This document shows positions 11,876 through 59,268 of a stretch of 64,000 nt of DNA, in pieces (positions within the stretch are counted from its first letter, which is position 1; every line of letters begins with the position of its first letter). A program made the translations under genes and the position numbers. Location: positions 90,354,722 to 90,418,721 of the forward strand of contig NC_073691.1 in assembly GCF_029784155.1 (NCBI RefSeq), in the 5' to 3' direction. The notes under the pieces were generated by a model, which was not told the origin of the DNA, did no database searches, and was given only the letters and a program-made list of their open reading frames with translations. The DNA comes from Uranotaenia lowii (taxonomy: Eukaryota > Arthropoda > Insecta > Diptera > Culicidae).

Positions 11876-12194
11876 TATAATAAACTGCAGAGCAGTCATT
11901 AAATAAAATATTCCCATTGGAATTCGATGAAATATTATTCCAAGATTGGTATTTTGAATTAAAGTCTCCAATAATAAAAAATTTAGATTCATTTCTGGTG
12001 AGTTTTTGTAAATCTCCCTATCAAAAATTTTTCTATTCACCGCTACATTGAAAAGGCAAATATGCGGCAACAATTATAATTTTCCCCATAAACGTTTCTA
12101 GTTCAATTCCAATTGTTTCTAAGACTTTTGTATTGAAAGAAGGAAGAAGTCTAAATTTGAGACGACTATTGATGACAATAGCTACACCCCCACC
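11876..12194 (-). pseudogene. Jockey ORF2 fragment, central endonuclease
   Basis: The minus-strand reading gives GGVAIVINSRLKFRLLPSF, then IGIELETF, IIIVAAYLP, and near 11960-11930 FFIIGDFNSKYQSWNN, the GDFN catalytic block. A stop or frameshift interrupts it near 12030. It joins directly to QGGG at 32529-32540 across the 20-kb element and to 10995 across the MITE. Confidence 0.82.
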
Positions 12195-12540
12195 CAGGCT
12201 TCGGACACCTGTGTTAAATGCGCAAGCAAAGAGAGCGCAAGCAATCTCTCATTTTTTCCGGAATGGCAACCCGGCGCGAGCAAAACTTGCACGCAAAATG
12301 AACAGAATGAACACATGAATGAACTTTTTTTTGAATTGGCAGTTAAGAAAAACTAATTTAATAAAACTAAATTAACGATTTAAACAATGTTAAGCATTTT
12401 TGGGTACTAGAAAAAAAGCCCACAACTGAACAAAGACCACAAAATACTTTATAAACGTTCATAACATTCAATTTCCAGGTAAATTCATCATATAAGAACA
12501 AACATGACAACATATTGAATTTTTCACTATATTAACTTAA
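12195..12540. other. left subterminal region of the 20-kb element
   Basis: The first ~120 bp are GC-richer than the rest and carry repeated GCGCAAGC motifs (TAAATGCGCAAGCAAAGAG, then GAGCGCAAGCAATCTCTC). An inverted relative, GCTTGCGCATTTAACAGCAG, occurs at about 30790-30810. From about 12520 the sequence grades into the 180-bp satellite. No gene is visible; a 61-residue frame at 12133-12318 only crosses the element border. Confidence 0.6.
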
Positions 12541-15500
12541 TTTGAAAAGTTTGTTCAACAAAAACAAATGCGGCACTAAGCCACTATACTAGGTATGTTG
12601 GTTTTGATACTAGAAACAAAACGTAGTACTCAGAATTTTCCCTTACCCCGTGAATTTTCCGGAATTTCCACATCAGTGCATATATGTCGAAATATTAACT
12701 TTTTCACTATATGAACTTAGTTTGAAAAGTTTGTTCAACAAAAACAAATGCGGCACTAAGCCACTATACTAGGTATGTTGGTTTTGATACTAGAAACAAA
12801 ACGTAGTACTCAGAATTTTCCCTTACCCCGTGAATTTTCCGGAATTTCCACATAAGTGCGTACATGTCGAAATATTGACTTTTTCACTATATTAACTTAA
12901 TTTGAAAAGTTTGTTCAACAAAAACAAATGCGGCACTAAGCCACTATACTAGGTATGTTGGTTTTGATACTAGAAACAAAACGTAGTACTCAGAATTTTC
13001 CCTTACCCCGTGAATTTTCCGGAATTTCCACATCAGTGCATATATGTCGAAATATTAACTTTTTCACTATATGAACTTAGTTTGAAAAGTTTGTTCAACA
13101 AAAACAAATGCGGCACTAAGCCACTATACTAGGTATGTTGGTTTTGATACTAGAAACAAAACGTAGTACTCAGAATTTTCCCTTACCCCGTGAATTTTCC
13201 GGAATTTCCACATAAGTGCGTACATGTCGAAATAATGACTTTTTCACTATATTAACTTAATTTGAAAAGTTTGTTCAACGAAAACAAATGCGGCACTAAG
13301 CCTTTATACTAGGTATGTTGGTTTTGATACTAGAAACAAAACGTAGTACTCAGAATTTTCCCTTACCCCGTGAATTTTCCGGAATTTCCACATCAGTGCA
13401 TATATGTCGAAATATTAACTTTTTCACTATATGAACTTAGTTTGAAAAGTTTGTTCAACAAAAACAAATGCGGCACTAAGCCACTATACTAGGTATGTTG
13501 GTTTTGATACTAGAAACAAAACGTAGTACTCAGAATTTTCCCTTACCCCGTGAATTTTCCGGAATTTCCACATAAGTGCGTACATGTCGAAATATTGACT
13601 TTTTCACTATATTAACTTAATTTGAAAAGTTTGTTCAACAAAAACAAATGCGGCACTAAGCCACTATACTAGGTATGTTGGTTTTGATACTAGAAACAAA
13701 ACGTAGTACTCAGAATTTTCCCTTACCCCGTGAATTTTCCGGAATTTCCACATCAATGCATATACGTCGAAATATTGACTTTTTCACTATATTAACTTAA
13801 TTTGAAAAGTTTGTTCAACAAAAACAAATGCGGCACTAAGCCACTATACTAGGTATGTTGGTTTTGATACTAGAAACAAAACGTAGTACTCAGAATTTTC
13901 CCTTACCCCGTGAATTTTCCGGAATTTCCACATCAATGCATATACGTCGAAATATTGACTTTTTCACTATATTAACTTAATTTGAAAAGTTTGTTCAACA
14001 AAAACAAATGCGGCACTAAGCCACTATACTAGGTATGTTGGTTTTGATACTAGAAACAAAACGTAGTACTCAGAATTTTCCCTTACCCCGTGAATTTTCC
14101 GGAATTTCCACATCAATGCATATACGTCGAAATATTGACTTTTTCACTATATTAACTTAATTTGAAAAGTTTGTTCAACAAAAACAAATGCGGCACTAAG
14201 CCACTATACTAGGTATGTTGGTTTTGATACTAGAAACAAAACGTAGTACTCAGAATTTTCCCTTACCCCGTGAATTGTCCGGAATTTCCACATAAGTGCG
14301 TACATGTCGAAATATTGACTTTTTCACTATATTAACTTAATTTGAAAAGTTTGTTCAACAAAAACAAATGCGGCACTAAGCCACTATACTAGGTATGTTG
14401 GTTTTGATACTAGAAACAAAACGTAGTACTCAGAATTTTCCCTTACCCCGTGAATTTTCCGGAATTTCCACATCAATGCATATACGTCGAAATATTGACT
14501 TTTTCACTATATTAACTTAATTTGAAAAGTTTGTTCAACAAAAACAAATGCGGCACTAAGCCACTATACTAGGTATGTTGGTTTTGATACTAGAAACAAA
14601 ACGTAGTACTCAGAATTTTCCCTTACCCCGTGAATTTTCCGGAATTTCCACATAAGTGCGTACATGTCGAAATATTGACTTTTTCACTATATTAACTTAA
14701 TTTGAAAAGTTTGTTCAACAAAAACAAATGCGGCACTAAGCCACTATACTAGGTATGTTGGTTTTGATACTAGAAACAAAACGTAGTACTCAGAATTTTC
14801 CCTTACCCCGTGAATTTTCCGGAATTTCCACATAAGTGCGTACATGTCGAAATATTGACTTTTTCACTATATTAACTTAATTTGAAAAGTTTGTTCAACA
14901 AAAACAAATGCGGCACTAAGCCACTATACTAGGTATGTTGGTTTTGATACTAGAAACGAAACGTAGTACTCAGAATTTTCCCTTACCCCGTGAATTTTCC
15001 GGAATTTCCACATCAGTGCATATATGTCGAAATATTAACTTTTTCACTATATGAACTTAGTTTGAAAAGTTTGTTCAGCAAAAACAAATGCGGCACTAAG
15101 CCACTATACTAGGTATGTTGGTTTTGATACTAGAAACAAAACGTAGTACTCAGAATTTTCCCTTACCCCGTGAATTGTCCGGAATTTCCACATAAGTGCG
15201 TACATGTCGAAATATTGACTTTTTCACCATATTAACTTAATTTGAAAAGTTTGTTCAACAAAAACAAATGCGGCACTAAGCCACTATACTAGGTATGTTG
15301 GTTTTGATACTAGAAACAAAACGTAGTACTCAGAATTTTCCCTTACCCCGTGAATTTTCCGGAATTTCCACATAAGTGCGTACATGTCGAAATATTAACT
15401 TTTTCACTATATGAACTTAGTTTGAAAAGTTTGTTCAACAAAAACAAATGCGGCACTAAGCCACTATACTAGGTATGTTGGTTTTGATACTAGAAACAAA

Positions 15501-18480
15501 ACGTAGTACTCAGAATTTTCCCTTACCCCGTGAATTGTCCGGAATTTCCACATAAGTGCGTACATGTCGAAATATTGACTTTTTCACCATATTAACTTAA
15601 TTTGAAAAGTTTGTTCAACAAAAACAAATGCGGCACTAAGCCACTATACTAGGTATGTTGGTTTTGATACTAGAAACAAAACGTAGTACTCAGAATTTTC
15701 CCTTACCCCGTGAATTTTCCGGAATTTCCACATCAATGCATATAAGTCGAAATATTGACTTTTTCACTATATTAACTTAATTTGAAAAGTTTGTTCAACA
15801 AAAACAAATGCGGCACTAAGCCACTATACTAGGTATGTTGGTTTTGATACTAGAAACAAAACGTAGTACTCAGAATTTTCCCTTACCCCGTGAATTTTCC
15901 GGAATTTCCACATCAATTCATATATGTCGAAATATTGACTTTTTCACTATATTAACTTAATTTGAAAAGTTTGTTCAACAAAAACAAATGCGACACTAAG
16001 CCACTATACTAGGTATGTTGGTTTTGATACTAGAAACAAAACGTAGTACTCAGAATTTTCCCTTACCCCGTGAATTTTCCGGAATTTCCACATCAATGCA
16101 TATAAGTCGAAATATTGACTTTTTCACTATATTAACTTAATTTGAAAAGTTTGTTCAACAAAAACAAATGCGGCACTAAGCCACTATACTAGGTATGTTG
16201 GTTTTGATACTAGAAACAAAACGTAGTACTCAGAATTTTCCCTTACCCCGTGAATTTTCCGGAATTTCCACATCAGTGCATATATGTCGAAATATTAACT
16301 TTTTCACTATATGAACTTAGTTTGAAAAGTTTGTTCAACAAAAACAAATGCGGCACTAAGCCACTATACTAGGTATGTTGGTTTTGATACTAGAAACAAA
16401 ACGTAGTACTCAGAATTTTCCCTTACCCCGTGAATTTTCCGGAATTTCCACATAAGTGCGTACATGTCGAAATATTGACTTTTTCACTATATTCACTTAA
16501 TTTGAAAAGTTTGTTCAACAAAAACAAATGCGGCACTAAGCCACTATACTAGGTATGTTGGTTTTGATACTAGAAACAAAACGTAGTACTCAGAATTTTC
16601 CCTTACCCCGTGAATTTTCCGGAATTTCCACATCAGTGCATATATGTCGAAATATTAACTTTTTCACTATATGAACTTAGTTTGAAAAGTTTGTTCAACA
16701 AAAACAAATGCGGCACTAAGCCACTATACTAGGTATGTTGGTTTTGATACTAGAAACAAAACGTAGTACTCAGAATTTTCCCTTACCTCGTGAATTTTCC
16801 GGAATTTCCACATCAGTGCATATATGTCGAAATATTAACTTTTTCACTATATGAACTTAGTTTGAAAAGTTTGTTCAACAAAAACAAATGCGGCACTAAG
16901 CCACTATACTAGGTATGTTGGTTTTGATACTAGAAACAAAACGTAGTACTCAGAATTTTCCCTTACCCCGTGAATTTTCCGGAATTTCCACATCAGTGCA
17001 TATATGTCGAAATATTAACTTTTTCACTATATGAACTTAGTTTGAAAAGTTTATTCAGCAAAAACAAATGCGGCACTAAGCCACTATACTAGGTATGTTG
17101 GTTTTGATACTAGAAACAAAACGTAGTACTCAGAATTTTCCCTTACCCCGTGAATTGTCCGGAATTTCCACATAAGTGCGTACATGTCGAAATATTGACT
17201 TTTTCACTATATTAACTTAATTTGAAAAGTTTGTTCAACAAAAACAAATGCGGCACTAAGCCACTATACTAGGTATGTTGGTTTTGATACTAGAAACAAA
17301 ACGTAGTACTCAGAATTTTCCCTTACCCCGTGAATTTTCCGGAATTTCCACATCAATGCATATACGTCGAAATATTGACTTTTTCACTATATTAACTTAA
17401 TTTGAAAAGTTTGTTCAACAAAAACAAATGCGGCACTAAGCCACTATACTAGGTATGTTGGTTTTGATACTAGAAACAAAACGTAGTACTCAGAATTTTC
17501 CCTTACCCCGTGAATTTTCCGGAATTTCCACATCAGTGCATATATGTCGAAATATTAACTTTTTCACTATATGAACTTAGTTTGAAAAGTTTGTTCAACA
17601 AAAACAAATGCGGCACTAAGCCACTATACTAGGTATGTTGGTTTTGATACTAGAAACAAAACGTAGTACTCAGAATTTTCCCTTACCCCGTGAATTGTCC
17701 GGAATTTCCACATAAGTGCGTACATGTCGAAATATTGACTTTTTCACCATATTAACTTAATTTGAAAAGTTTGTTCAACAAAAACAAATGCGGCACTAAG
17801 CCACTATACTAGGTATGTTGGTTTTGATACTAGAAACAAAACGTAGTACTCAGAATTTTCCCTTACCCCGTGAATTTTCCGGAATTTCCACATCAGTGCA
17901 TATATGTCGAAATATTAACTTTTTCACTATATGAACTTAGTTTGAAAAGTTTGTTCAACAAAAACAAATGCGGCACTAAGCCACTATACTAGGTATGTTG
18001 GTTTTGATACTAGAAACAAAACGTAGTACTCAAAATTTTCCCTTACCCCGTGAATTGTCCGGAATTTCCACATAAGTGCGTACATGTCGAAATATTGACT
18101 TTTTCACTATATTACCTTAATTTGAAAAGTTTGTTCAACAAAAACAAATGCGGCACTAAGCCACTATACTAGGTATGTTGGTTTTGATACTAGAAACAAA
18201 ACGTAGTACTCAGAATTTTCCCTTACCCCGTGAATTTTCCGGAATTTCCACATCAGTGCATATATGTCGAAATATTAACTTTTTCACTATATGAACTTAG
18301 TTTGAAAAGTTTGTTCAACAAAAACAAATGCGGCACTAAGCCACTATACTAGGTATGTTGGTTTTGATACTAGAAACAAAACGTAGTACTCAGAATTTTC
18401 CCTTACCCCGTGAATTTTCCGGAATTTCCACATCAATGCATATACGTCGAAATATTCACTTTTTCACTATATTAACTCAT
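12541..18480 (+). repeat. 180-bp satellite, 33 tandem copies
   Basis: The block is exactly 33 x 180 bp with no indel; differences between units are a handful of substitutions. The conserved part covers about 140 bp, including AAACAAATGCGGCACTAAGC and CCCTTACCCCGTGAATTTTC. A ~40-bp variable segment defines three variants: CATCAGTGCATATATG with ATGAACTTAG, CATAAGTGCGTACATG with ATTAACTTAA, and CATCAATGCATATACG. There is no ORF. Partial units continue on both edges (12500-12540, 18481-18500). The period is near nucleosome length, as in many centromeric or heterochromatic satellites. Confidence 0.97.
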
Positions 18481-19560
18481 TTTGAAACGTTGTTCTAACA
18501 ACTGAATTTAGTTTGATTTAGATACTAGAAATAAAACATAGTTCAGCAGAACGTACTTTTATCTGACGATATTTTCGTTTAAATGCACTTCCAGAAATTC
18601 ATTGGATTGATTGTTTTTGTGTGCAGTTTTTGAGTGATGTGCTCAGAAATTTGGTCAAAAGTGAGCACTTTTCATGATTAATCCCTCAGTTTCCCAATAA
18701 CTTGGTATTTAAAATCACAGTGTTGAATTCCTTTGGAATATTGTACACAAGTTTTTTGCTGCATGCAAGTTTGGCTAAAAGGATTCATTTGTAAGCTTCA
18801 TTTTGTGCTTACACCGAACTAAAAATTACTATCAGTTTTACTTGAACATGTTTGCTTATCGTGAATTAATTAGTGAAGTGATTATTTTGTGAATCCTATT
18901 CAAGATAATATTTTATATTTTAATATGATTTTCCCTAATAAAAAAAACTATACATTATAAAAATGACAATTGAAATTTTTGAACATTGAGTGACAATGAG
19001 TATGTCGGAATATTGTGTTAGACTAATCTTTGAGCAAGTCTATCACATGTATATAACCTGATAAAATATTTCTAATCACTATCGCCAGTTTTAGTTTTTA
19101 TGATAACTTTTGTTCTATCATTTCTTACTAATATTTGTAGGGAAGTGCGCCTTAAATCAACTTATTCTTTTATTTATTACATGGATAATTTTGAGATTTA
19201 TCGTTACGCTGTATAAGGGAAATCAATGATTTTTATTAGAAACAACTTGCATAAAAGTTTCTCATTTCAAATTATTGTACGTTTAAAACAAAACAAAATA
19301 TTTAGCATATCCTAAAACTGGATGTTATTCATTTGGTTTGAATGCGAATAAAATTAAAGAAATTTTAAATTTGTGTCACCTATTCCTTATTATTTCTAAA
19401 CATATTTGCATATTTCGTTATTTTTATTCTGAAGTTTCAAGCTTAATAATATTAAGTTTGAAATATATTGTTATAAATAATTTGAATTTCGATTTTGCTA
19501 TTGTTTTTGCCATACCGACTCTTCTTTCTTTATAACTATTTTAACTATTTTAACAAATTC
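18481..19560. other. AT-rich spacer between satellite and short arrays
   Basis: About 1.1 kb of AT-rich sequence without a convincing ORF or inverted ends. The first ~60 bp still resemble decayed satellite. From 19340 a 65-codon frame opens that has no visible homology and runs into the repeats. Confidence 0.5.
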
Positions 19561-20838
19561 TTTGTTATATTTGTTATCTTTGTTATCTTTGTTATCTTTG
19601 TTATCTTTGTTATCTTTGTTATCTTTGTTATCTTTGTTATCTTTGTTATCTTTGTTATCTTTGTTATCTTTGTTATCTTTGTTATCTTTGTTATCTTTGT
19701 TATCTTTGTTATCTTTGTTATCTTTGTTATCTTTGTTATCTTTGTTATCTTTGTTATCTTTGTTATCTTTGTTATCTTTGTTATCTTTGTTATCTTTGTT
19801 ATCTTTGTTATCTTTGTTATCTTTGTTATCTTTGTTATCTTTGTTATCTTTGTTATCTTTGTTATCTTTGTTATCTTTGTTATCTTTGTTATCTTTGTTA
19901 TCTTTGTTATCTTTGTTATCTTTGTTATCTTTGTTATCTTTGTTATCTTTGTTATCTTTGTTATCTTTGTTACCTTTGTTATCTTTGTTATCTTTGTTAT
20001 CTTTGTTATCTTTGTTATCTTTGTTATCTTTGTTATCTTTGTTATCTTTGTTATCTTTGTTATCTTTGTTATCTTTGTTATCTTTGTTATCTTCGTTATC
20101 TTTGTTATCTTTGTTATCTTTGTTATCTTTGTTATCTTTGTTATCTTTGTTATCTTTGTTATCTTTGTTATCTTTGTTATCTTTGTTATCTTTGTTATCT
20201 TTGTTATCTTTGTTATCTTTGTTATCTTTGTTATCTTTGTTATCTTTGTTATCTTTGTTATCTTTGTTATCTTTGTTATCTTTGTTATCTTTGTTATCTT
20301 TGTTATCTTTGTTATCTTTGTTATCTTTGTTATCTTTGTTATCTTTGTTATCTTTGTTATCTTTGTTATCTTTGTTATCTTTGTTATCTTTGTTATCTTT
20401 GTTATCTTTGTTATCTTTGTTATCTTTGTTATCTTTGTTATCTTTGTTATCTTTGTTATCTTTGTTATCTTTGTTATCTTTGTTATCTTTGTTATCTTTG
20501 TTATCTTTGTTATCTTTGTTATCTTTGTTATCTTTGTTATCTTTGTTATCTTTGTTATCTTTGTTATCTTTGTTATCTTTGTTATCTTTGTTATCTTTGT
20601 TATCTTTGTTATCTTTGTTATCTTTGTTATCTTTGTTATCTTTGTTATCTTTGTTATCTTTGTTATCTTTGTTATCTTTGTTATCTTTGTTATCTTTGTT
20701 ATCTTTGTTATCTTTGTTATCTTTGTTATCTTTGTTATCTTTGTTATCTTTGTTATCTTTGTTATCTTTGTTATCTTTGTTATCTTTGTTATCTTTGTTA
20801 TCTTTGTTATCTTTGTTATCTTTGTTATCTTTGTTATC
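19561..20838 (+). repeat. 142 copies of the 9-bp unit TTTGTTATC
   Basis: 1278 bp equals exactly 142 x 9. Only a few units deviate (TTTGTTATA at the start, an ACC variant near 19970, a TTCG variant near 20093). Because 9 is a multiple of 3, long stop-free frames result. Confidence 0.97.
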
Positions 20839-20840
20839 GG

Positions 20841-22569
20841 TTTTCTGTTTTCTGTTTTCTGTTTTCTGTTTTCTGTTTTCTGTTTTCTGTTTTCTGTTTT
20901 CTGTTTTCTGTTTTCTGTTTTCTGTTTTCTGTTTTCTGTTTTCTGTTTTCTGTTTTCTGTTTTCTGTTTTCTGTTTTCTGTTTTCTGTTTTCTGTTTTCT
21001 GTTTTCTGTTTTCTGTTTTCTGTTTTCTGTTTTCTGTTTTCTGTTTTCTGTTTTCTGTTTTCTGTTTTCTGTTTTCTGTTTTCTGTTTTCTGTTTTCTGT
21101 TTTCTGTTTTCTGTTTTCTGTTTTCTGTTTTCTGTTTTCTGTTTTCTGTTTTCTGTTTTCTGTTTTCTGTTTTCTGTTTTCTGTTTTCTGTTTTCTGTTT
21201 TCTGTTTTCTGTTTTCTGTTTTCTGTTTTCTGTTTTCTGTTTTCTGTTTTCTGTTTTCTGTTTTCTGTTTTCTGTTTTCTGTTTTCTGTTTTCTGTTTTC
21301 TGTTTTCTGTTTTCTGTTTTCTGTTTTCTGTTTTCTGTTTTCTGTTTTCTGTTTTCTGTTTTCTGTTTTCTGTTTTCTGTTTTCTGTTTTCTGTTTTCTG
21401 TTTTCTGTTTTCTGTTTTCTGTTTTCTGTTTTCTGTTTTCTGTTTTCTGTTTTCTGTTTTCTGTTTTCTGTTTTCTGTTTTCTGTTTTCTGTTTTCTGTT
21501 TTCTGTTTTCTGTTTTCTGTTTTCTGTTTTCTGTTTTCTGTTTTCTGTTTTCTGTTTTCTGTTTTCTGTTTTCTGTTTTCTGTTTTCTGTTTTCTGTTTT
21601 CTGTTTTCTGTTTTCTGTTTTCTGTTTTCTGTTTTCTGTTTTCTGTTTTCTGTTTTCTGTTTTCTGTTTTCTGTTTTCTGTTTTCTGTTTTCTGTTTTCT
21701 GTTTTCTGTTTTCTGTTTTCTGTTTTCTGTTTTCTGTTTTCTGTTTTCTGTTTTCTGTTTTCTGTTTTCTGTTTTCTGTTTTCTGTTTTCTGTTTTCTGT
21801 TTTCTGTTTTCTGTTTTCTGTTTTCTGTTTTCTGTTTTCTGTTTTCTGTTTTCTGTTTTCTGTTTTCTGTTTTCTGTTTTCTGTTTTCTGTTTTCTGTTT
21901 TCTGTTTTCTGTTTTCTGTTTTCTGTTTTCTGTTTTCTGTTTTCTGTTTTCTGTTTTCTGTTTTCTGTTTTCTGTTTTCTGTTTTCTGTTTTCTGTTTTC
22001 TGTTTTCTGTTTTCTGTTTTCTGTTTTCTGTTTTCTGTTTTCTGTTTTCTGTTTTCTGTTTTCTGTTTTCTGTTTTCTGTTTTCTGTTTTCTGTTTTCTG
22101 TTTTCTGTTTTCTGTTTTCTGTTTTCTGTTTTCTGTTTTCTGTTTTCTGTTTTCTGTTTTCTGTTTTCTGTTTTCTGTTTTCTGTTTTCTGTTTTCTGTT
22201 TTCTGTTTTCTGTTTTCTGTTTTCTGTTTTCTGTTTTCTGTTTTCTGTTTACTGTTTTCTGTTTTCTGTTTTCTGTTTTCTGTTTTCTGTTTTCTGTTTT
22301 CTGTTTTCTGTTTTCTGTTTTCTGTTTTCTGTTTTCTGTTTTCTGTTTTCTGTTTTCTGTTTTCTGTTTTCTGTTTTCTGTTTTCTGTTTTCTGTTTTCT
22401 GTTTTCTGTTTTCTGTTTTCTGTTTTCTGTTTTCTGTTTTCTGTTTTCTGTTTTCTGTTTTCTGTTTTCTGTTTTCTGTTTTCTGTTTTCTGTTTTCTGT
22501 TTTCTGTTTTCTGTTTTCTGTTTTCTGTTTTCTGTTTTCTGTTTTCTGTTTTCTGTTTTCTGTTTTCTG
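20841..22569 (+). repeat. 247 copies of the 7-bp unit TTTTCTG
   Basis: 1729 bp equals exactly 247 x 7, with one clear variant (TTTACTG) near 22250. It follows the 9-bp array after only GG. The plus strand is purine-poor, so it may adopt unusual structures and is a likely site of length polymorphism. Confidence 0.97.
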
Positions 22570-22575
22570 TTTATC

Positions 22576-22932
22576 TTTTGTCTTTTGTCTTTTGTCTTTT
22601 GTCTTTAGTCTTTTGTCTTTTGTCTTTTGTCTTTTGTCTTTTGTCTTTTGTCTTTTGTCTTTTGTCTTTTGTCTTTTGTCTTTTGTCTTTTGTCTTTTGT
22701 CTTTTGTCTTTTGTCTTTTGTCTTTTGTCTTTTGTCTTTTGTCTTTTGTCTTTTGTCTTTTGTCTTTTGTCTTTTGTCTTTTGTCTTTTGTCTTTTGTCT
22801 TTTGTCTTTTGTCTTTTGTCTTTTGTCTTTTGTCTTTTGTCTTTTGTCTTTTGTCTTTTGTCTTTTGTCTTTTGTCTTTTGTCTTTTGTCTTTTGTCTTT
22901 TGTCTTTTGTCTTTTGTCTTTTGTCTTTTGTC
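22576..22932 (+). repeat. 51 copies of the 7-bp unit TTTTGTC
   Basis: 357 bp equals exactly 51 x 7, with one variant (TTTAGTC) near 22606. It is separated from the preceding array by about 6 bp. Confidence 0.96.
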
Positions 22933-22935
22933 TTT

Positions 22936-23560
22936 GAATTTAAGAATTTAAGAATTTAAGAATTTAGGAATTTAAGAATTTAAGAATTTGAGAATTTGAG
23001 AATTTAAGAATTTTAGAATTTTAGAATTTTAGAATTTTAGAATTTTAGAATTTTAGAATTTTAGAATTTTAGAATTTTAGAATTTTAGAATTTTAGAATT
23101 TTAGAATTTTAGAATTTTAGAATTTTAGAATTTTAGAATTTTAGAATTTAAGATTTTTAGAATTTTAGAATTTTAGAATTTTAGAATTTTAGAATTTTAG
23201 AATTTTAGAATTTTAGAATTTTAGAATTTTAGAATTTTAGAATTTTAGAATTTTAGAATTTTAGAATTTTAGAATTTTAGAATTTTAGAATTTTAGAATT
23301 TTAGAATTTTAGAATTTTAGAATTTTAGAATTTTAGAATTTAAGAATTTAAGAATTTTAGAATTTTAGAATTTTAGAATTTTAGAATTTTAGAATTTTAG
23401 AATTTTAGAATTTTAGAATTTTAGAATTTTAGAATTTTAGAATTTTAGAATTTTAGAATTTTAGAATTTTAGAATTTTAGCATTTTAGAATTTTAGAATT
23501 TTAGAATTTTAGAATTTTAGAATTTTAGAATCTTAGGATTTTAGAATTTAAGATTTTAAA
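22936..23560 (+). repeat. 8-bp arrays GAATTTAA then GAATTTTA
   Basis: A short run of GAATTTAA units (to about 22996) turns into roughly 65-70 units of GAATTTTA. These decay after 23530 into poorly matching units. The composition switches from T/C/G-rich to A/T-rich at 22936. Confidence 0.94.
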
Positions 23561-24609
23561 GTTTTTTAATTTTACAATTTCAAAATTTTAAAATTTTTAA
23601 ATTTCAGAACGAAATAATTTTAGAATTTTAGAACTATTATTTCTTAAGTTTTATATGCCTATTTGTTTTTTTTTTTTTCATTTTACTGATTTTTACTATC
23701 ATAATTAAAGAGGCTTTAAGTTTTGAATTTTGGAATGAAGGATTCAAAAACCTGGAAATCCTAGAAATAAGCAACACCACTTTATATTATAGAAAGATGA
23801 AATTTATTTTTTATCTACATTTTCATAACTGATTGAATGAAGAATGTTACTTATTAATTCAAGCACGTTCTGTTATTAATAAAAATCTCAATAGACAGTT
23901 ACTATAGAATATACTCATTTCAATTTCCTGTGAAATCTGGCGCATATGTTTCCAATTGTCATCATTAAATAAAGGTTTCTTAGATGCTAATTATATAAAT
24001 CCATGCTGTGAAACATGAAATTTCAACATGAGCACTATTTTCAGTGAACAGAAAGTTGTGTTGGGTTCATCTGAGCTGTCATAACATTATTTTGAGTTCA
24101 TCCTATTTCATCGAGTTTATCAAATTGTCTATTTTACTGCAAGAAGTGAATGTTTATGTAGCAACTTTTAAAGAAAATTTTATTATTTAAAAAATATCCT
24201 TACATCTAAAGTTAACAATGAAATGGACGAGGCACCGATCGAAAGAGCGTATAAACGGTTGTTTGTTTGCGATCTACGAAAGGTGTCTGCTATGGTAAGT
24301 GAATTTTGATTGCAATTTAATAGTGTTTCTTCCGCTCCAAATACTCACCTACTATCTTTAATTCTAGCTTGCTGATATGACCTTGATGGTCGAAATCGCG
24401 TCCGAAGGCACCGCTGAAGCCGAAAACGATCGACCCATATTTTGTGAATGTTAATCAGAAATGCTTGTGCCCAAGATTTTATTGAAAAAGTAATTGGCGC
24501 ATCTGGCCGAAAAAACACCAAAAAGGTTAGATTAAATTATTTAAATGTGAAAATTATGTTATTGAATAATTGTGAAATATGAAGTGAAAATAAATTTCTC
24601 CAATCTTAA
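23561..24609. other. AT-rich spacer with one possible small gene
   Basis: Mostly featureless AT-rich sequence. It contains the candidate two-exon frame at 24223-24454 and the TTAA flank of the piggyBac-like MITE. No inverted ends or RNA gene are seen. Confidence 0.4.
24223..24454 (+). CDS. possible two-exon small protein (52 aa) or gene remnant
   Basis: I do not recognise this sequence. An ATG in good context (GAAATGG) at 24223 opens 24 codons (MDEAPIERAYKRLFVCDLRK then VSAM) ending at a strong donor, ATG|GTAAGT at 24295. An acceptor TTCTAG ends at 24367. Exon 2 continues in the same frame for 28 codons (LADMTLMVEIASEG..., ending PIFCEC) to TAA at 24452-24454. The coding-like stretch is less AT-rich than its surroundings. 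It lies inside the 20-kb element, so it could be a captured host exon pair or the remnant of a transposon gene. Splice sites and codon-like composition are seen; expression and function are unknown. Confidence 0.3.
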
Positions 24610-25495
24610 CCCTTTCCTTCCCATGGTAGCACAGGTGATCCACAACTTTGCACAGCTCGCATTTAAACTGGGCGCTTTGGATCAACACCATTTTTTCACT
24701 GAATGTGTAGATATGAGTGAAGAAACATTGCACGAAATTTGAAGAAAATCGGTTCGCTAGGTTTTGCTTGACAGATCAAAAGCTGCAAAAAAGTAGATTT
24801 TTTTCGAATTTAAATCAAGTCGTCATTTGTTGTTCAATAACTTGACAAGTTTTTATAATTTCTTTCAAATAAAAATACTGACGTGCAGAAGGTTGCTTAT
24901 GCAAGCAGAATCAAATGATGGTTTACTTAGATTTCTACTAAAACACATAAATTTTTGAGTAAGTAAAGTGGATCACTGGTGATACACTGGGAACAAAACG
25001 TACTTTTGTTCTTGTGAAGCTTCTTATCAATACTCATGAAAATCATTTCGTCAACAAAAAAATCGCTTCAGGATTGTTGTTTCATTTGCTTAAATGACCA
25101 CATGCCTCAAAATATATGTAAAAGTTCGTGATTTTCTCGAAAAACGGCATGTTTTGTTTTCCTTGCGCAGTGTCATGGCGGCCATTGTTCAAGGCAAAAA
25201 TGAACTTTCGAGGGATGCGAATACCAAAGAATTTTTTTATCTAATAGGATCGTTTTAGTTTGTGATCAATGAAGTGATGAAATTCCACGTTTTTTTGCAA
25301 TTATTTCTTGTTTTTCATTTGTACCCTATGTGTTGTTATCTTCCCAATGGAGCACATATGATCCACCTCAAAAACCAAATTTATCAAATGAATCATTAAA
25401 GTAGGCCTCAATTATGCATCTTTTGTTCTAGAACATTAGCTGTAAATCAATATTTCTATTTTTAAAACGTGAAAAACCTCGTGGGAAGGAAAGGG
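24610..25495. mobile_element. 886-bp piggyBac-like MITE, TTAA target
   Basis: Perfect 14-bp inverted ends, CCCTTTCCTTCCCA at 24610-24623 and the complement at 25482-25495, are flanked by TTAA at 24606-24609 and 25496-25499. TTAA targets and CCC-starting ends are diagnostic of piggyBac-type elements. The motif TGATCCAC occurs near the left end (24646), near 25359 and inverted around 24970, each next to a TTCCCA-like sequence, forming subterminal repeats. No transposase is present. Confidence 0.88.
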
Positions 25496-25499
25496 TTAA

Positions 25500-26279
25500 G
25501 CAATTATTCCGTGTTATGAATCTTTTGAGTACAATTTTATATAGACTATTTCTTGTTGTTAATTTCTGTACATGAAGAAATTTTTTCCTGAAATTGATGT
25601 TTCATTTTATGATAAATTTCCATTCTTTAATAAGTTAGAAAAAAAGGTGAATGGTTAAGAGTTTTTCCAAAAATTATGTAGAATCAAGAATTTAAGTTGA
25701 GATGATTTGCTTAACAATCACCAAAAAAAACAGTTTTTTACTTCTTAAGGATTAAGTATTCATAGGTAATGAAACATTCCTAATAATTTCGATACGAAAT
25801 TGGCTAATTTCAAAACGTAAACAAACGGAATGAACTAATGAACGTTTTGTTTACAAATCAACGAAATGAGACGATAGAGAGGCTAATTACGCTCTCTTTA
25901 CTTGCGTATTTTACTCTGGTCACTCATTGTGAGCTTTTCAAGGCGCGTCGTTGCTGAAAAAAGTGTAAAAAAAACATCTAGGCGTTTAAATGAAGTACCT
26001 ACATCTGGGCGTTTAATAATCGGTGTCAAGTCAATTGAAAGGTGAAGCTGTTTTCTACACTACATAATATGAAATTTTAGAATAATAAAGAAAAAAGCAC
26101 ATTTAAAATCTTGGATTACGACAATCGTCGAAATCGTTATAATAATCCAAAGCAATTTTTTTCACTTATCTCTACGTGCTTCAAAAGGCAATGAAAATCC
26201 CAACATAAAATAATAAACAATAGATAAAATTATTTTATATTCATAATTTTAACAGTGTTTATATGAAGAGAAAAAAATC
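25500..26279. other. AT-rich spacer with a GAGAGGC/GCTCTCT motif
   Basis: No gene. Around 25870-25900 the sequence GAGAGGCTAATTACGCTCTC recurs in related form at 28350-28370 (GAGAGGCAGTTAACGCTCTC). Both lie just before decayed satellite copies, so they may be the same subterminal region of older copies of the 20-kb element's family. Confidence 0.45.
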
Positions 26280-26610
26280 GAAATTTACTTCCAAGTACAC
26301 TTATGTAAAATTTCCGTAAAATTTAGAGTACTACGTTTTGTATTCATGAATATAATCAATATACCTAGTGAAGAGGCTTGTTGAATTTTTTATTTGAAGT
26401 TCATAGAAAGAAAAAAACGCTTTTTGGACATGTATGCACTTATGTGGAAATTCCGGAAAATTTACGGGGCAAGGGAAAATTTTAAGTACATACTAGGTTA
26501 TGTTTTTAGTATCAAAACGAACATACCAAGTACAGTGACTAAGTGCCACATTTGGTTCTGATAAACAAATTCTTCAAATTTAGTTAGTTTCGTCAACTGA
26601 AGTAACATGC
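26280..26610 (-). repeat. decayed 180-bp satellite copies, inverted
   Basis: About two diverged units read in the opposite orientation to the 12541-18480 array. Recognisable parts are TGGAAATTCCGGAAAATTTA, GGGGCAAGGGAAAATTTTAA, AACATACCAAGTACAGTGAC and AAGTGCCACATTTGG. Confidence 0.75.
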
Positions 26611-28372
26611 AACACTTTTCAACATCAATGGTTTCTCAAAAATTGTATTGACAGCTGATCATACCGCTTATCCATCAAAAATTTTAAAAGTTGGTGGGAT
26701 ATAAAAAGATGTAATCATTTTTTTTTCTTATTATTTAAATTTTCTTAAACATGCGATTTTTATACCTTTCTCAGAAAAAGGGGTTGAATGCAGCAAACTT
26801 TCTTTTGAATAAAAAATAAAATGAAAACTTTTAAAAATTAATAGATTTAGATAAGCTTGTGGTGCTATAAATGCCCATGCCCAATGCCAAACACCAATTG
26901 CATTAAATTTGGTTTTGTTTGGATTTTTCAACAATAATGCTTTAGAATACTACAATAAATTCTACTAGCTGAAATCATAAAAATAAATTTTTGAATGGTT
27001 GGAATTTTTATGTTAACAAACGTGACGTGTGACGTGACGTGACGGTTAACAACCATATGTCCATGAATCAATATGATTTAAATTTATTTGCATCTTAACC
27101 GAGACTGGTAAGTGAATTAAAATTTTTTTTCAATATTGGTGACTGTTTGAAAAATATTTTTACACCAAGAGTGTTAGTAATAGAGAGTTTGATATTACTA
27201 GGCCAATTTTCATACGGGGAAAATTTTAAAACGGCATCGAAAAATGTTTCAATTTCTTTATCTTTTTCTCGATTTTTTAAATTTTCTCTGAGAACCAAAA
27301 ACATTACAAACTAGCTTAAGATGTAAAAGATTGTGTCATCATCATTTTGTAACCATTAAATGACAACTCGATTGCATTATTATTGAAAACAAAATTGAAT
27401 AAGAGCTGTGATATACAAATGTTGCCTCTAGCCCCTTATGATGCCTGTTTATTGGTATTGTGAAAAAAAAACGCTTTTCGACATGTATACTCGAATTGTA
27501 GAAATTTAAATAAAAAAACATGTTCTAGAATAAAAATGAATTCCAATTTTTTATTTTGATTGTGTTGTAAGGTCTCTATTGCACTATGTTATGAAATGTT
27601 TTGGTCCTTTGGAGATTGCATAATTATTTTTTTTCTAATTTTATTTATGCACAAATGAAGAAAAAATCAGTTTTAAAAAGGTCTAGTTGGTAGTTATTGA
27701 GGGTTGAACTGATTGTCATGATTTTTATCCAACCGTTATACTACATTCAGTTCTTATGTAGAACAATTAACATCAATAAATGGTTGTTAACTCGATTTAC
27801 TTAAAAGTGCTCAAATGTCAATTGATTATGGTTTTGTATAAAAATTTGTGTTTTGATTACTTTATTGTAACAAGGATCTTAAACTGCATTGACTTGAACA
27901 TTTCCATGGAAGACTTTGAACTAATTTTACAGTTTTGCAAATTTGAGTAGGGAAAATCCATTATTTTTCGAACTTTGATGGCCTATTTTATATAAAAATT
28001 ACCCGAAAATCCAACTTTTTCTGCACCGATCATGAAGAGCAAGAGTTATTCTAGAAAAACAAGTTTTAAAAGTGGAAAGTTTCTCGCAAATTCTTCGAAT
28101 TATCAACGAAAAAGGCAAATTTTCCATGTAGTTTGACAGATTTATCGTGATTATGACGACACAGTCTGTACCAATACTAGAGCAGGGCTGCCTTGGCACT
28201 ACCTTCTTTAAATATTCCTTGGATTTTTTCTTCATGTTTTACTTTTTCATCATTTTGGAGCATAATTCATTTATTGACATTTTGGAAAAGTAAACAAACA
28301 TTAGCTAAGAATGAACCACTTGCGTTCAAGTAAGCGAAAAGAGACATTTGAGAGGCAGTTAACGCTCTCTTA
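26611..28372. other. AT-rich spacer, no gene
   Basis: No convincing frame or RNA gene. A GTGACGTGTGACGTGACGTG microrepeat lies near 27020-27045. Near 27470-27500 a short decayed satellite piece (CGCTTTTCGACATGTATAC) is visible. The short minus-strand frames at 26731, 27095 and 27999 have no protein-like character. Confidence 0.4.
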
Positions 28373-28537
28373 AGCCTAGTCCACACTAGGAGACGGTTCG
28401 TCTCGAGACGGTCTCAGCGTCTCCCATTTTCTTCGGGAGACACTGCGACCGTCTCATTTTTCCAACAACAACAACAGACAACAAAGTTCGTCTCATAACA
28501 AAAATCGCCGTTCATGTTGCCTAGTGTGGACTAGGCT
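28373..28537. mobile_element. 165-bp Harbinger-like MITE, TTA target
   Basis: The inverted ends are AGCCTAGTCCACACTAGG at 28373 and the complement ending at 28537. TTA duplications lie at 28370-28372 and 28538-28540. The interior contains several GTCTC/GAGAC inverted motifs. A 3-bp TTA target is typical of PIF/Harbinger elements. Confidence 0.85.
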
Positions 28538-28599
28538 TTAGCCTGCTCAATCAACAAACACCACTCACCCTGAGTTCCTCGGGCGTCGCGGCATGGGAA

Positions 28600-29690
28600 A
28601 ATCAAAACGTTCCACCCACTTTTGGGGAAATTTCGGAAAACTTTCAGGTTAAGGGAAAATTATGATACCAACCTTTTTCTAAAAGATTCGAAATCAACAC
28701 AGTTGCTTATTGCGAATTTTTGTTGTTGAACAAACTTCAAATTATGCTGGAATATTGAAAAATCTAACATTTCGTTCACTATGCACTTATTGGGAAATTC
28801 CGGGAAATTCACGAGACCAGGAGATAATCTTAGTACCTACTAGATTTGTTTCTAGTATCAAAACCAACATATCTAGTATAGTGGCTTAGTGCTGCATTTG
28901 GTTTTGTTGAACAAACTTTTCGAATTATATTAATATAGTGAAAAATTCAATATAATGACATATATGTATTTATATGGAAATTCAGAAAAAAATCACGGGG
29001 TAAGGGAAAATTCTAAGTACTATGTTTTGTTTATAGCACCAAAACCAACATACCTAGTATAGTGGCTGAGTGCCGTTTTTTTCTGTTGAACGAATTTTTC
29101 AAATTCAGTTGCAATTGTGAAAAATTCAATATTTCAACATATGTACCCTTATGAGGAAAATCCGGAAAATTCATGGGATAAGGGAAAATTCTGAGTACAA
29201 CGTTTTGTTTATAGTATTAAAACTCACATATCTATCTAGTATATTGGTTTAGTGCCCCATTTGTTTTTCTTGAATAAACTTTTCAAATTAAATTTCTTTA
29301 TTGAAAAATTAAAAACAGCCTCAAGAAGAATGTTACATACAATGGAAATTCGGGAAAACTCACAGGGCCAGGGGAAAATTCTGAGTACTACAATTTGTTA
29401 CTGGTTTTAAGTTTTGTAAAAAATTTTTTTAAATTGAGTTGATATTGTGAAAAATACAAAATTTTGAAATATATACACTTATATGGAAATTACGGAAAAT
29501 GTACGGGGTTAGGGAAAACTTTGAGTACAAAGTTTTGTGTCAAGGATCTTTAACAAAAATACATACCTAATGCATACTGCAGCATTGTTGGACAAACTTT
29601 TCAAATTAATCTTGTAAAGTGTACAATTCAAAATTTCGACATACATATATAGATTTACGTGGAAATTCCTTAAAACTCATATGGTATGGA
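28600..29690 (-). repeat. decayed 180-bp satellite array, inverted
   Basis: About six diverged units with a spacing near 180 bp (GGAAATT...CGG cores near 28630, 28795, 28978, 29158, 29340, 29485 and 29660) carry AACATACCTAGTATAGTGGC and TTGTTGAACAAACTTTTC. They are the reverse complement of the young array and much more diverged from one another than its units. Confidence 0.85.
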
Positions 29691-29733
29691 AAGATTCTGG
29701 GTACTATTTTTTTCAGAATCCAAAAGATCATTA

Positions 29734-30206
29734 GGGGCCGTTCAGATATAACGTGGACAGAAAACTGAAATTTTTTACCCTCTCCTCCCCCAACGTGGAC
29801 AAGCGTGGACATTTAGCAAACCCCTAACTTCTCCCCGGATGTCCACGTGGACAGATTTGAGATTGTTTTTATTTTCTAAATTTGACAGAAAACACTACTT
29901 CTTGCTTTTTTTTTGTTGAAATGGATGATTTTGAGAAAAACGAAAAAGCATTTCCTGATATAAAATAATTATATAAATTTTAAATTTCTAAACTTTCATA
30001 TATATCACTTGCCTTCTAGTGGCTACTAGTTGTTTAAACTTAAACTGGAAAGCTTTGCAATTTATGATTTTGATTTAAACATCTTAATATTTTAGTGGAC
30101 TAAGTGGACATGACCAAAACTCCTACTCCCCTCTCCGTGGACAAGCGTGGACATTTCCATACACCCCCCTTTCCATAAGTTGTCCACGTGGTATGTGAAC
30201 GGCCCC
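29734..30206. mobile_element. 473-bp Harbinger-like MITE, TTA target
   Basis: The inverted ends GGGGCCGTTCA (29734) and TGAACGGCCCC (ending 30206) are flanked by TTA at 29731-29733 and 30207-30209. Multiple GTGGACA/TGTCCAC motifs (for example CGTGGACAAGCGTGGACA twice) lie near both ends. No coding sequence. Confidence 0.87.
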
Positions 30207-30209
30207 TTA

Positions 30210-31242
30210 TCGGTTTAAACAATTGGTGCTACATTTGATTTTGTTGATAATTTTTTTTTGTGCGCATGCACTTCGGTAGTAATTTTAGAACAAGTTTTTA
30301 TTGCCAGATGCCTTGCTTAAATATACTTTTGATGAGTAAGTGCTGTATTTTGTTTCTTTGAACAGATGTTTGGTTCAAATTTTAAAGTGTTCAATAATAA
30401 AATAACAGTTTATTTATATAGATATAAAAAAAAAATCACCAATGTTGAAGTTTTAAAACGAATGCTTTCATACAGCATTTAAAATTCTTAATTATTTTAT
30501 GGAATAATATGATAACCAGAGTATTAAGCATCATTTTTTACATGAGCAACGTTTTAATTTAAGAATATGACATGTTTGTTCCCTTGCATGTTTATGTTAT
30601 GTAGGTTAACAGCGAATTTTTAGATTATAACTTTATTTGCTAACTCAAATTATTCAATTATTCACTTTAAATTTCCCAATTATGAGTATAACAAGTTAGA
30701 CGTGAGCCGAAATTGCTTGCAAGTATTCTTTAAGCCGTGCTGCCAAAGAGACAAAATTGGTCACTCATTTTGCTTGCGCGAATCACTCACTGCTTGCGCA
30801 TTTAACAGCAGTGCTCGCAAACGCGTCTTCGCAGAGCAACAAATTTTCAAAACCAAACTTTTACGTAATGACTGTTTGATGTCAAATGTCTTAGAAATTG
30901 CATAAAACGTCTGGCACTGTCTGGGCCAGATCGGACCACGGGTTGGGAACGCTTAACGAGCCTGAAGTTTGTATGGGATTTTGAAACATTTTGTTTAGGT
31001 AGAATTCCCTCCGGCTGATTTCTTTTAAATACAGTTTTTCTTGTAGCTAAGTTATGACAAATATTTCATTCCAAGGCTGTAATACGTTTAATAAAAGTTA
31101 TTCAGCTTTAGAAACAGGCTAATATTTTAAATGATTCATCACTATTACAGAGGCGTCAGAATTTTCAACCGGCCCGACCGAAACGCTCAATTTGAAATGA
31201 AAAATTGAATCGTATAAGAAATGTTTTGAAATTTTTTGATAA
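30210..31242. other. spacer with an inverted copy of the 20-kb element's end motif
   Basis: AT-rich until 30690. A GC-richer patch at 30690-30860 contains GCTTGCGCATTTAACAGCAG (the inverse of the subterminal motif at 12210) plus TTGCTTGCAAG and GCTCGCAAACGCG. The 67-codon plus frame at 30702 overlaps this patch and looks accidental. Nothing else is identified. Confidence 0.45.
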
Positions 31243-31761
31243 AATTGCATAACTACAGGGGCTAAGCATCATGTCTTTCAGTACTTTTTCGGTTGTAGTT
31301 TTCACACAATTCAAAAAAAAAATCCTGAATTTGGAAATCTTCTAAGACTGACCCAAAGTATTTTTTTCATATAATTCTTGTCAAAATTGTTTCACAAATA
31401 ACTTAGTTTTTTTTTTATAAATTTGGTGAATTCATTAAATAAACTATTTTAAAATTCAACACAATTCACTCTTACTCGAATAAAACACTTTATTTGAATT
31501 ACTGACAGTAAAACGATAGTTATCTTCATTCTCGATTTGAAAAAAATTCATACATATGTGCAATGGTGTACAATGTTGTGGTATGTACAATATTTTCTTT
31601 TCGTATAAGTTAAATTATCTCAGTTATTTGTGTAACATCTTTGACAAGAACTATATCAAAATGAGTCAGTCCTTATATAGGAAAAAAATTAAGTGGAAGT
31701 TAAAAATACAACCGAAAAAGTACTGAAAGTCATATTGCTTAGCCCCTGTAGTTATGCAATT
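31243..31761. mobile_element. 519-bp TIR element, TAA target
   Basis: Long inverted ends of about 60 bp with few mismatches begin AATTGCATAACTACAGGGGC and include CTTTCAGTACTTTTTCGGTT. TAA flanks are at 31240-31242 and 31762-31764. The trinucleotide TWA-type duplication suggests a Harbinger-type MITE. The interior is AT-rich without an ORF. Confidence 0.82.
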
Positions 31762-32528
31762 TAAGTAAAAATTATCAAAACAATCCTCAACGATAAAATT
31801 ATTCCTTTAAAAAAAAGGTGTAAATAATCTTGAACAGAGCTTTTGAAAATTAAATCGGTCGAATATACCTCTAGTTTCACCGACAAATAACACAGAGTTA
31901 CAAAAGTCACTAAATGAAAAATTTATTAGAAAGTTAAAAATGAAAATTCAGAAATTAACAGAATAAAAAAAAGAGTTATAAGTTTAATTTCAAGGAAGAT
32001 TTGTTTTGAATGGATTTCTTAATTGGATGTGTTGCAACGCACACAGTAGTGTATATACAAAAATAAAATAGAAGCAGGTCATCGATCAATCAACGAAATC
32101 TCAAAATGACAAACTTCGCAATTTCGCATTTTTAAAAGTTGCAAATTTAGACCTAATTGTGAAGAGATTGCCCCTTGACTGGATAGTTTATTACGAATAA
32201 AAGTTTTTTAATCAATGTCAATTTTTTAACCAAAGTGTATTGTTTATTTCGGTTTTGATGTTATTATCTTTAAAAAAAAACAGCAAAAAGATTATCCATA
32301 GCGAACAACACCATCACTATGTGTACACTTCAAGAGTGCTCTTTGGGAGACGCACTTAAAAAGTACTCATTTCAATTTTGAGTGTTTTGTGAGTGACGAA
32401 AAATGCTCCCTGTGTGTATCGTCACTCTGCTCCAATCAACCACTCTTGCTCCACTCACAACAACATTGAAAGAGCGGAGCTGAAAAATACACCGCTCTTG
32501 TATTGCTCTGAGATGCGTCCGAAGCCTG
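31762..32528. other. right end of the 20-kb element
   Basis: AT-rich to about 32300, then a subterminal region with repeated GAGTG/CACTC words (AAGAGTGCTC, GAGTGTTTTGTGAGTGACG, CACTCTGCTCC, CACTCTTGCTCC). It ends in the 12-bp TIR. No gene. Confidence 0.5.
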
Positions 32529-32734
32529 CCCCCACCTTGTCGATCAAGTCGATCATTTCGAAAAATTTTAAAGAAAGCATTGCTTTTCAAGTTAATGTCT
32601 GGCTTCAAAAAAGTTTCAGTGATGGCAGCAATATGTATGTTTTGAGTTTTAAAAAATAAAAAGAATTCATCCTGGTTAGCCAGCAAAGATCTAGCATTCC
32701 AATTCATAATATTTAAACATCTATTTGGATCCAT
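32529..32734 (-). pseudogene. Jockey ORF2 start, N-terminal endonuclease
   Basis: ATG at 32734 begins MDPNRCLNIMNWNARSL, then AAITETFLKPD and FRNDRLDRQGGG. The N-WNARSL and TETFL blocks are the first two endonuclease motifs. The start overlaps the end of ORF1 by 14 bases (ORF1 stop TAG at 32721-32723), a common LINE arrangement. The frame is cut at 32529 by the 20-kb element and resumes at 12194. Confidence 0.88.
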
Positions 32735-34145: not shown

Positions 34146-34375
34146 GCTGCAAAGAAAAGAGAAAAATATGTATAAAAGAAAATAGAAATAATTTTAGCAC
34201 TGAAAAGTGCTGATTGAAAAACAGGTAAGGAAAAAATAAATAATGTAAAAATGTTCCTGCAGGTACACAGCAACGATACGATGCTCCGGCGTACGTGTTG
34301 ACGGCTCAACGGTACAGATGGAAGTGAAATAGGAGACACTGATTGCGGGCAGTTCAAAGCATCATTGAACTCTCT
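34146..34375 (-). other. probable Jockey 5' UTR
   Basis: Minus-strand sequence upstream of ORF1. It contains a GC-richer block at about 34260-34360 (complement of ACGATGCTCCGGCGTACGTG) that differs from the surrounding AT-rich DNA and would hold the internal promoter expected of a LINE. The boundary near 34375 is estimated, as no target duplication can be tested. Confidence 0.45.
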
Positions 34376-41077: not shown

Positions 41078-41082
41078 TCTGG

Positions 41083-59099: not shown

Positions 59100-59264
59100 T
59101 ACCGAAATCCTAACATGTGTAAATCGTTAAACTGTTCTGTAATTTTTTCGGTAAAAAATAAACGAACATCGGTAAAGCGACTCTTCATTTACCGATGTTC
59201 GTTTATTTTTTACCGAAAAAATTACCGAACAGTTTAACGATTTACACATGTCAGGATTTCGGTA
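59100..59264. repeat. palindrome 1
   Basis: Two ~77-base arms, starting TACCGAAATCCTAACATGTG and mirrored to GGATTTCGGTA, with only a couple of mismatches around an ~11-base spacer. The left outer part (CACAGTAAACG at 59064) has lost its partner. Confidence 0.9.
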
Positions 59265-59268
59265 CACA

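What the first reader, a model, noticed from the sequence alone, without database searches (positions are those of the whole stretch)
12195..32528. A 20.3-kb hAT-like element that carries a whole satellite array
Seen: perfect 12-bp inverted ends, an identical 8-bp direct repeat (CCCCCACC) on each side, and restoration of a Jockey endonuclease frame when the insert is removed. Known: 8-bp duplications and CAG-type ends mark hAT transposons, which are normally 1-5 kb. Inference: a non-autonomous giant that moved, or grew after insertion, with 6 kb of satellite and 4 kb of simple arrays. This would be a vehicle for seeding satellite DNA around a genome.
Basis: partly seen in the sequence, partly recalled or inferred. 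Interest (0 to 1): 0.92.

Follow-up and report, generated by a model that had tools for sequence, protein, structure and literature searches.

The report
Giant transposon family carrying satellite arrays

Summary
In detail: 12-bp ends, 8-bp duplication, gap-free Jockey endonuclease frame when the insert is skipped. The outer ends belong to a real hAT family (17 of 18 relatives fetched have identical 8-bp TSDs; one encodes the hAT dimerisation domain). But the hAT copy is only 12195-12206 plus 30813-32528. Between lies another element, here called X (12207-30812, 18,606 bp), with its own sharp ends. Genome-wide there are 29 exact left and 25 exact right ends (mirror control 0), forming 23 pairs of 1.3-41.4 kb (21 over 10 kb) on three chromosomes. 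Of 22 non-window pairs, 19 have exact 9-10-bp TSDs. A copy on C3, read in part, is 98-100% identical in aligned blocks, with the same microsatellite arrays in the same order but different lengths. A diverged subfamily carries a 179-bp array in the same place, ~70% alike. So X does spread satellite DNA, by DNA transposition, but is not hAT. It works like Tetris/Foldback (probably Mutator-type) elements; its transposase is not found. The window's X lacks a TSD and the hAT beside it has lost ~278 bp, so the 20.3-kb compound probably never moved as one unit.

The parts
10809..12194 (-). Jockey-type non-LTR element, rest of the endonuclease downstream of the insert; pieces further down to about 8.5 kb look like its reverse transcriptase but were not tested
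   Evidence: ORFs; joined endonuclease frame
12187..12194 (.). hAT target-site duplication, left copy CCCCCACC
12195..12206 (+). left terminal inverted repeat of the hAT host copy; hAT positions 13-290 (of L005) are missing behind it
12207..30812 (+). element X: satellite-carrying transposon, 18,606 bp, inside the hAT copy; no TSD in this copy
   Evidence: sharp left edge; sharp right edge; whole-genome ends
12207..12227 (+). X left terminal repeat ACCTGTGTTAAATGCGCAAGC
12512..18501 (+). X left arm: 180-bp satellite array, 33 copies, 97% alike
18502..19558 (.). X spacer without tandem repeats
   Evidence: within a 98% collinear block of the C3 copy
19559..23633 (.). X simple arrays in series: TCTTTGTTA, TGTTTTC, TTTGTCT, GAATTTTA; same order, other lengths, in the C3 copy
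23962..24437 (+). X interior block best kept across subfamilies (65-73%), with exon-like but decayed stretches
24609..25496 (.). nested element with TTAA-type ends, absent from the C3 copy (empty site there)
26298..26595 (-). X right arm: inverted, diverged satellite copies
28377..28538 (.). small nested palindromic element, absent from the C3 copy
28613..29724 (-). X right arm: about six inverted satellite copies; the five aligned here are 71-85% identical to the left array
29730..30210 (.). older nested repeat in X, partly present in the short derivative L066 and, elsewhere in the copy, in L108
30792..30812 (-). X right terminal repeat (read inward ACTGCTGTTAAATGCGCAAGC)
30813..32528 (+). 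rest of the hAT host copy (from about position 291 of L005), ending in its right terminal inverted repeat 32517-32528
31217..31787 (.). nested foldback-type repeat in the hAT remainder
32529..32536 (.). hAT target-site duplication, right copy CCCCCACC
32537..34193 (-). Jockey-type element, upstream part: start of the endonuclease and gag-like ORFs (gag by eye; no Pfam hit for 32721-33569)
   Evidence: ORFs

Best explanation
The 20.3-kb insert is two nested transposons. A hAT copy (about 1.7 kb of it left, a 0.57-kb nested repeat included) jumped into a Jockey element and made the 8-bp duplication. Into it went X, an 18.6-kb non-coding element with short imperfect terminal inverted repeats, satellite monomers in opposite orientation in its two arms, and 4 kb of microsatellite arrays. 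X belongs to a family of at least 23 end-to-end copies (1.3-41 kb) that move as units by cut-and-paste DNA transposition with 9-10-bp target duplications. It therefore deposits ready-made satellite arrays at new loci. Shown: ends, TSDs, near-identity of the window copy and a C3 copy over the stretches compared, satellite monomers behind all 19 other left ends read. Inferred: a transposase supplied in trans, most likely Mutator-like (from the 9-bp TSD and foldback anatomy); homogenisation of the left array inside each lineage; loss of the window copy's TSD and of hAT positions 13-290 by a deletion that ends at X's left tip.
For: Left edge of homology at 12207 in 19 of 19 other loci read, with unrelated flanks (two of them, L057 and L059, share a flank) and satellite monomers downstream in all 19. 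Right edge: 25 other X matches end at window 30810-30822, 18 of them exactly at 30812 (40 of 1426 candidates scored). 29 left and 25 right exact ends, mirror controls 0. 23 convergent pairs, median 23.3 kb, 21 of 23 over 10 kb. TSD in 22 non-window pairs: 19 exact at 9-10 bp, 1 with 8 of 9, 2 none; of 364 mismatched end combinations 1 reached 6 bp. C3 copy: aligned blocks covering most of window 18407-30813 are 98-100% identical, all four simple arrays in the same order, with empty sites for two of the window's nested elements; its first 306 bp are 100% identical. L108: own 179-bp array, 97-98% homogeneous, ~70% identical to the window's monomer, same place. hAT host: PF05699 in relative L009, 40.8 bits against a cut-off of 21.4.
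Against: No transposase was found in the parts of X and its copies that I read, so Mutator-like is by TSD and anatomy only. X's terminal repeats are short (about 21 bp, imperfect) and the two leaders share only about 40 bp, unlike the long inverted repeats of classical foldbacks. Two of 22 non-window pairs and the window copy lack TSDs. Of the large copies I read only the right 14.8 kb and the left end of the C3 copy and one 8-kb copy (L108); the interiors of most 13-41 kb copies were not read. The simple arrays differ in copy number between the window and C3.
Confidence: 0.87

Rival explanations
1. One reading: one giant non-autonomous hAT moved with the satellite as cargo, or grew by expansion of its own repeats.
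For: Perfect 12-bp ends, 8-bp duplication, restored Jockey frame; X lies wholly between hAT ends.
Against: 18 of 18 other hAT copies fetched lack the satellite; X has 22 other end pairs of its own, 19 of them with exact 9-10-bp TSDs; hAT positions 13-290 are gone at the left, while Hermes needs about 220 bp of each end (PMC10368747, passages).
Confidence: 0.04
2. X is a cut-and-paste element of a superfamily other than Mutator (for example Merlin or an undescribed group with 9-bp TSDs).
For: No transposase known; short terminal repeats; a 9-bp TSD is not unique to Mutator-like elements (recall).
Against: Aedes Mutator-like families have 8-9-bp TSDs and mostly tandem repeats inside their ends (PMC5225508, passages); Tetris has 8-10-bp TSDs and 220-bp tandem repeats in its ends (PMC4079207).
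Confidence: 0.3
3. X copies were spread by duplication, ectopic recombination or circular DNA re-insertion, not by a transposase.
For: One locus (C3:230.9 Mb) has an X right end abutting an X left end; C2:313.69 Mb has two left ends with one flank.
Against: Constant ends and different 9-10-bp TSDs at 19 of 22 pairs.
Confidence: 0.04
4. Assembly artefact in 12.2-32.5 kb.
For: Long arrays are hard to assemble; reads were not available.
Against: The same order of arrays and spacers is assembled at a separate locus on C3, and the ends recur at many loci.
Confidence: 0.02

Closest known systems
Tetris, foldback transposon of Drosophila virilis (PMC4079207; abstract, section 10 and part 1 of section 16 read)
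   Same: Non-coding, 8-10-bp TSDs, tandem repeats (220 bp) in inverted arms; its repeats also form satellite-like arrays of up to 66 copies, amplified inside the element
   Different: Three structurally complete copies were described, inverted repeats up to 1.7 kb, and the authors suggest that larger arrays may have disrupted transposition. X has 22 other end pairs, mostly 13-41 kb, 19 with exact TSDs, plus microsatellite arrays; X's own terminal repeats are short and imperfect.
Muta1 and other Mutator-like elements of Aedes aegypti (PMC5225508, passages)
   Same: 8-9-bp TSDs; tandem repeats in foldback-type ends (Muta1); many non-autonomous copies with unrelated interiors
   Different: Muta1 is 3.2 kb and codes for a transposase, with 12-bp subterminal repeats; the passages seen mention no 180-bp satellite; no transposase found for X
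Cg_HINE Helentrons of the Pacific oyster (PMC7492417, passages)
   Same: Dispersed non-autonomous elements that carry satellite-like arrays, with subfamily-specific monomers
   Different: Helentrons; arrays mostly up to 5 monomers, longest 29.3; X has TSDs and inverted ends
Galileo, P superfamily (search listing; mentioned in PMC4079207 section 16)
   Same: Foldback-like ends with internal tandem repeats that bind transposase
   Different: Its family codes for a transposase; sequence relation to X was not tested
hAT superfamily (host copy; PMC3942097 and PMC3517528, passages)
   Same: 12-bp ends, 8-bp TSD, dimerisation domain in relative L009
   Different: Window TSD fits neither nTnnnnAn nor nnnTAnnn; the host copy is reduced to about 1.7 kb around X

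Membership tests
hAT superfamily (outer element) | Short terminal inverted repeats (10-25 bp) | tested here: met
   12 bp perfect; the same in the 18 relatives, which were chosen by it
hAT superfamily (outer element) | 8-bp target-site duplication | tested here: met
   Window 8/8; 17 of 18 relatives 8/8, one 4/8
hAT superfamily (outer element) | hAT transposase in the family | tested here: met
   L009, same ends and TSD, PF05699 E 2e-10 in one of three stop-separated pieces, the other two without a Pfam hit; none in the window insert (106 ORF pieces of 38 aa or more scanned)
hAT superfamily (outer element) | Ac or Buster target pattern (subgroup only) | tested here: not met
   CCCCCACC fits neither pattern (patterns); bears on the subgroup, not the superfamily
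Foldback / Tetris-type element (X) | 8-10-bp TSD | tested here: met
   19 of 22 non-window pairs exact 9-10 bp; window copy none
Foldback / Tetris-type element (X) | Tandem repeats in opposite orientation in the two arms | tested here: met
   Left array +, right copies -; also in the C3 copy, and one inverted copy in L108
Foldback / Tetris-type element (X) | Long terminal inverted repeats | tested here: inconclusive
   Only about 21 bp at the tips and about 40 bp near them; satellite arms 71-85% alike
Foldback / Tetris-type element (X) | No coding capacity | tested here: met
   No transposase domain in 106 window pieces; outside simple arrays the longest ORF pieces in the C3 stretch and in L108 are 119 and 102 aa, not searched for domains
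Mutator superfamily (X) | Moved by a Mutator-like transposase | not tested
   No autonomous relative found; the wider end search did not complete
Helitron/Helentron (X) | No TSD, insertion between A and T (recall) | tested here: not met
   9-10-bp TSDs

The most novel reading that the evidence does not exclude
X is a dedicated satellite vehicle: a DNA transposon lineage that keeps a homogenised satellite in one arm as a working part of transposition, re-homogenises it in each subfamily, moves 10-40 kb of satellite and microsatellite as one unit, and is the main or only dispersal route of this satellite in the genome.
Probability: 0.4. Interest if true: 0.9.

Novelty: new variant of a known kind. 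Interest (0 to 1): 0.78.

Why it matters
How satellites get to new places has been argued from short arrays in Helentrons, or from foldback elements thought to stop jumping once their arrays grow. Here 19 clean 9-10-bp duplications frame elements of mostly 13-41 kb, and satellite monomers stand behind every one of the 19 other left ends that were read; two copies on different chromosomes also share 4-5 kb of microsatellite in the same order. Two subfamilies hold different but homogeneous satellites in the same arm, so satellite turnover can be followed inside a countable mobile element rather than in a heterochromatin block. It would make the seeding of satellite DNA directly testable in one insect genome.

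Tried and rejected
Rejected: a giant hAT (see rivals); a macrotransposon made of two hAT copies (considered, dropped when X's own edges appeared); a P-type outer element (27-31-bp ends in Anopheles P elements, PMC1562414 passages). A transposase relic in the insert: Pfam on 106 stop-free pieces of 38 aa or more, the tandem arrays left out, gave one DUF2427 hit at 8.5e-5 (which piece, I did not trace) and three hits above 0.03, nothing of a transposase; the exon-like stretch near 24.2-24.5 kb matched nothing in Pfam or PDB, and its alignment to six X copies showed frame-breaking gaps. Rfam: nothing at gathering scores. Satellite and end patterns in viral and prokaryote contigs: nothing. Jockey endonuclease in Pfam: only a weak hit (0.19, joined) and none for the halves, so the empty site rests on the protein alignment.

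Left open for lack of answers or letters: the wider search TGTTAAATGCGCAAGC for an autonomous relative; full interiors of most X copies; the spacer search 18502-19540; the 365 hAT-end places that one search counted but did not list.
Full report
1. The observation. Ends plus repeats alone are not overwhelming: in 40 simulated windows of like composition three such pairs arose, and the window itself has a second pair at 55533-63286. The Jockey test is much stronger. With the insert skipped and one TSD kept, the endonuclease frame runs through, and the three public relatives found align across the junction without a gap.

2. The outer element is hAT. The own genome (1.078 Gb, 2009 contigs; window at C1:90354722-90418721) holds 233 and 232 exact copies of the 12-mer; the tool's mirror control is void for this word. 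Among the 100 places listed I counted 19 convergent pairs, the window included, and fetched the other 18. Seventeen have identical 8-bp flanks, and these duplications differ from copy to copy. Of 20 further single places read, 18 look like family ends by eye. The window's right end aligns to 17 of the 18 over 182-613 bp at 74-89%, and to L009 over 41 bp. L009 (4.8 kb) carries a transposase in stop-separated pieces; one of three has the hAT dimerisation domain PF05699 above its cut-off, the other two have no Pfam hit. None of the 18 has the satellite.

3. The inner element. The window's left end beyond the first 12 bases matched none of the hAT copies and ends read. Searched against the genome it gave 30 matches, 17 of them others at 88-100% and 12 weaker ones at 76-82%. 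In the 19 other loci read, similarity begins at window 12207, upstream DNA is unrelated (L057 and L059 share a flank), and satellite monomers follow in all 19; in 17 of 19 the array runs to the end of the 1.5 kb held. A search with 30420-31000 (40 of 1426 candidates scored) showed the other edge: 25 other X matches end at window 30810-30822, 18 of them at 30812, and five hAT matches start at 30813. The tips are ACCTGTGTTAAATGCGCAAGC and, read inward from the right, ACTGCTGTTAAATGCGCAAGC. Exact 20-mers of these tips occur 29 and 25 times, mirror controls 0. They make 23 convergent pairs of 1,299 to 41,351 bp, median 23,251, total 527 kb: 5 on C1, 9 on C2, 9 on C3; 6 left and 2 right ends stay unpaired.

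4. Movement. Of the 22 pairs other than the window, 19 have exact 9-bp (17) or 10-bp (2) duplications and one has 8 of 9. Two have none; in one of these the left end abuts the right end of another X copy. Among 364 mismatched end combinations one reached 6 bp. Of the C3 copy at 10857500-10881158 I read the left end (L050) and the right 14.8 kb. Its aligned blocks agree with window 18407-30813 at 98-100%. The four simple arrays stand in the same order, with about 139, 301, 121 and 115 copies against 142, 249, 52 and 87 in the window. It lacks two of the window's nested elements and has a 2.6-kb insert of its own. So X moved with its arrays, and these nested elements came later. A 1,299-bp derivative with its own TSD keeps both leaders and less than one whole left monomer.

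5. The satellite belongs to X. Left monomers are 97.2% alike on average; six right-arm copies in opposite orientation are 71-85% like them. In L108, of a diverged subfamily, the left array has a 179-bp monomer, 97-98% homogeneous and about 70% like the window's; four right-hand blocks are 91-98% kept and two others 79-80%. The place of the array is thus older than the split, and its sequence has been replaced evenly in each line (inference). Every satellite match listed lies in one of 10 X copies, but only 20 of 115 candidates were scored and the listing of 201 matches was cut. An interior probe found 19 matches, the window's own included: 16 inside paired X copies and 3 beside unpaired X ends. 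I did not show that no array exists outside X.

6. The window compound. To the right of X the hAT resumes at position 291 of copy L005; positions 13-290 are absent on the left and X has no TSD here. A deletion from hAT position 12 to X's tip explains both. That it ends exactly at X's tip, perhaps as an adjacent deletion by X itself, is inference. Because Hermes, a hAT element, needs some 220 bp of each end (PMC10368747, passages), the compound probably did not move as a hAT.

7. Classification. X works like Tetris and other foldback elements, and 9-bp TSDs suit Mutator-like elements, which in Aedes have repeat-bearing ends (PMC4079207; PMC5225508). I do not file it as a member: no transposase was found and its terminal repeats are short. 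Five searches of the open library listed, by title and start of abstract, no report of an inverted-repeat DNA transposon of this size carrying satellite; I did not open most of the papers listed, and subscription journals are not covered.

Noticed in passing
window 55533-63286: Second hAT-like insert, 7.75 kb: ends CAGGGGTGAGCA, TSD GGTTAGCA (fits the Buster pattern nnnTAnnn), containing palindromic CCGAATTCGGTAA-type tandem repeats at 59.06-60.66 kb.
   Followed up: partly
window 26590-27435: This part of X is 65-68% like the middle of hAT copies L014+L015, L019 and L022 (and part of L016), in reverse; either a shared third repeat or old exchange between the two families.
   Followed up: no
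G000 C3:230908705/230908706 (L082, L103, L108): An X right end, two bases short, directly abuts an X left end: tandem X-X junction.
   Followed up: partly
G000 C2:169133915 (L056): An extra inverted left end with its own satellite array inside the 26.4-kb X copy C2:169131704-169158140.
   Followed up: no
G000 C1:81085983 (L105): Unpaired exact X left end followed by different sequence after about 24 bp: possible related element with another interior.
   Followed up: no
G000 C3:10876722-10879301 (L090): 2.6-kb insert of 181-bp tandem repeats inside the right arm of the C3 X copy: another array-carrying insertion.
   Followed up: no
G000 C3:370245442: An X left end about 25 kb from the end of C3 (370,270,374 bp), its right end not found.
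   Followed up: no
window 35261-35735 and 40603-41078: 476-bp direct repeats, 99% identical, 5.3 kb apart: LTR-like pair; a 110-bp tandem array lies between at 38844-39597.
   Followed up: no
window 24210-24437: Exon-like stretch with splice-like borders in X's conserved interior, with frame-breaking gaps among the six copies aligned.
   Followed up: partly
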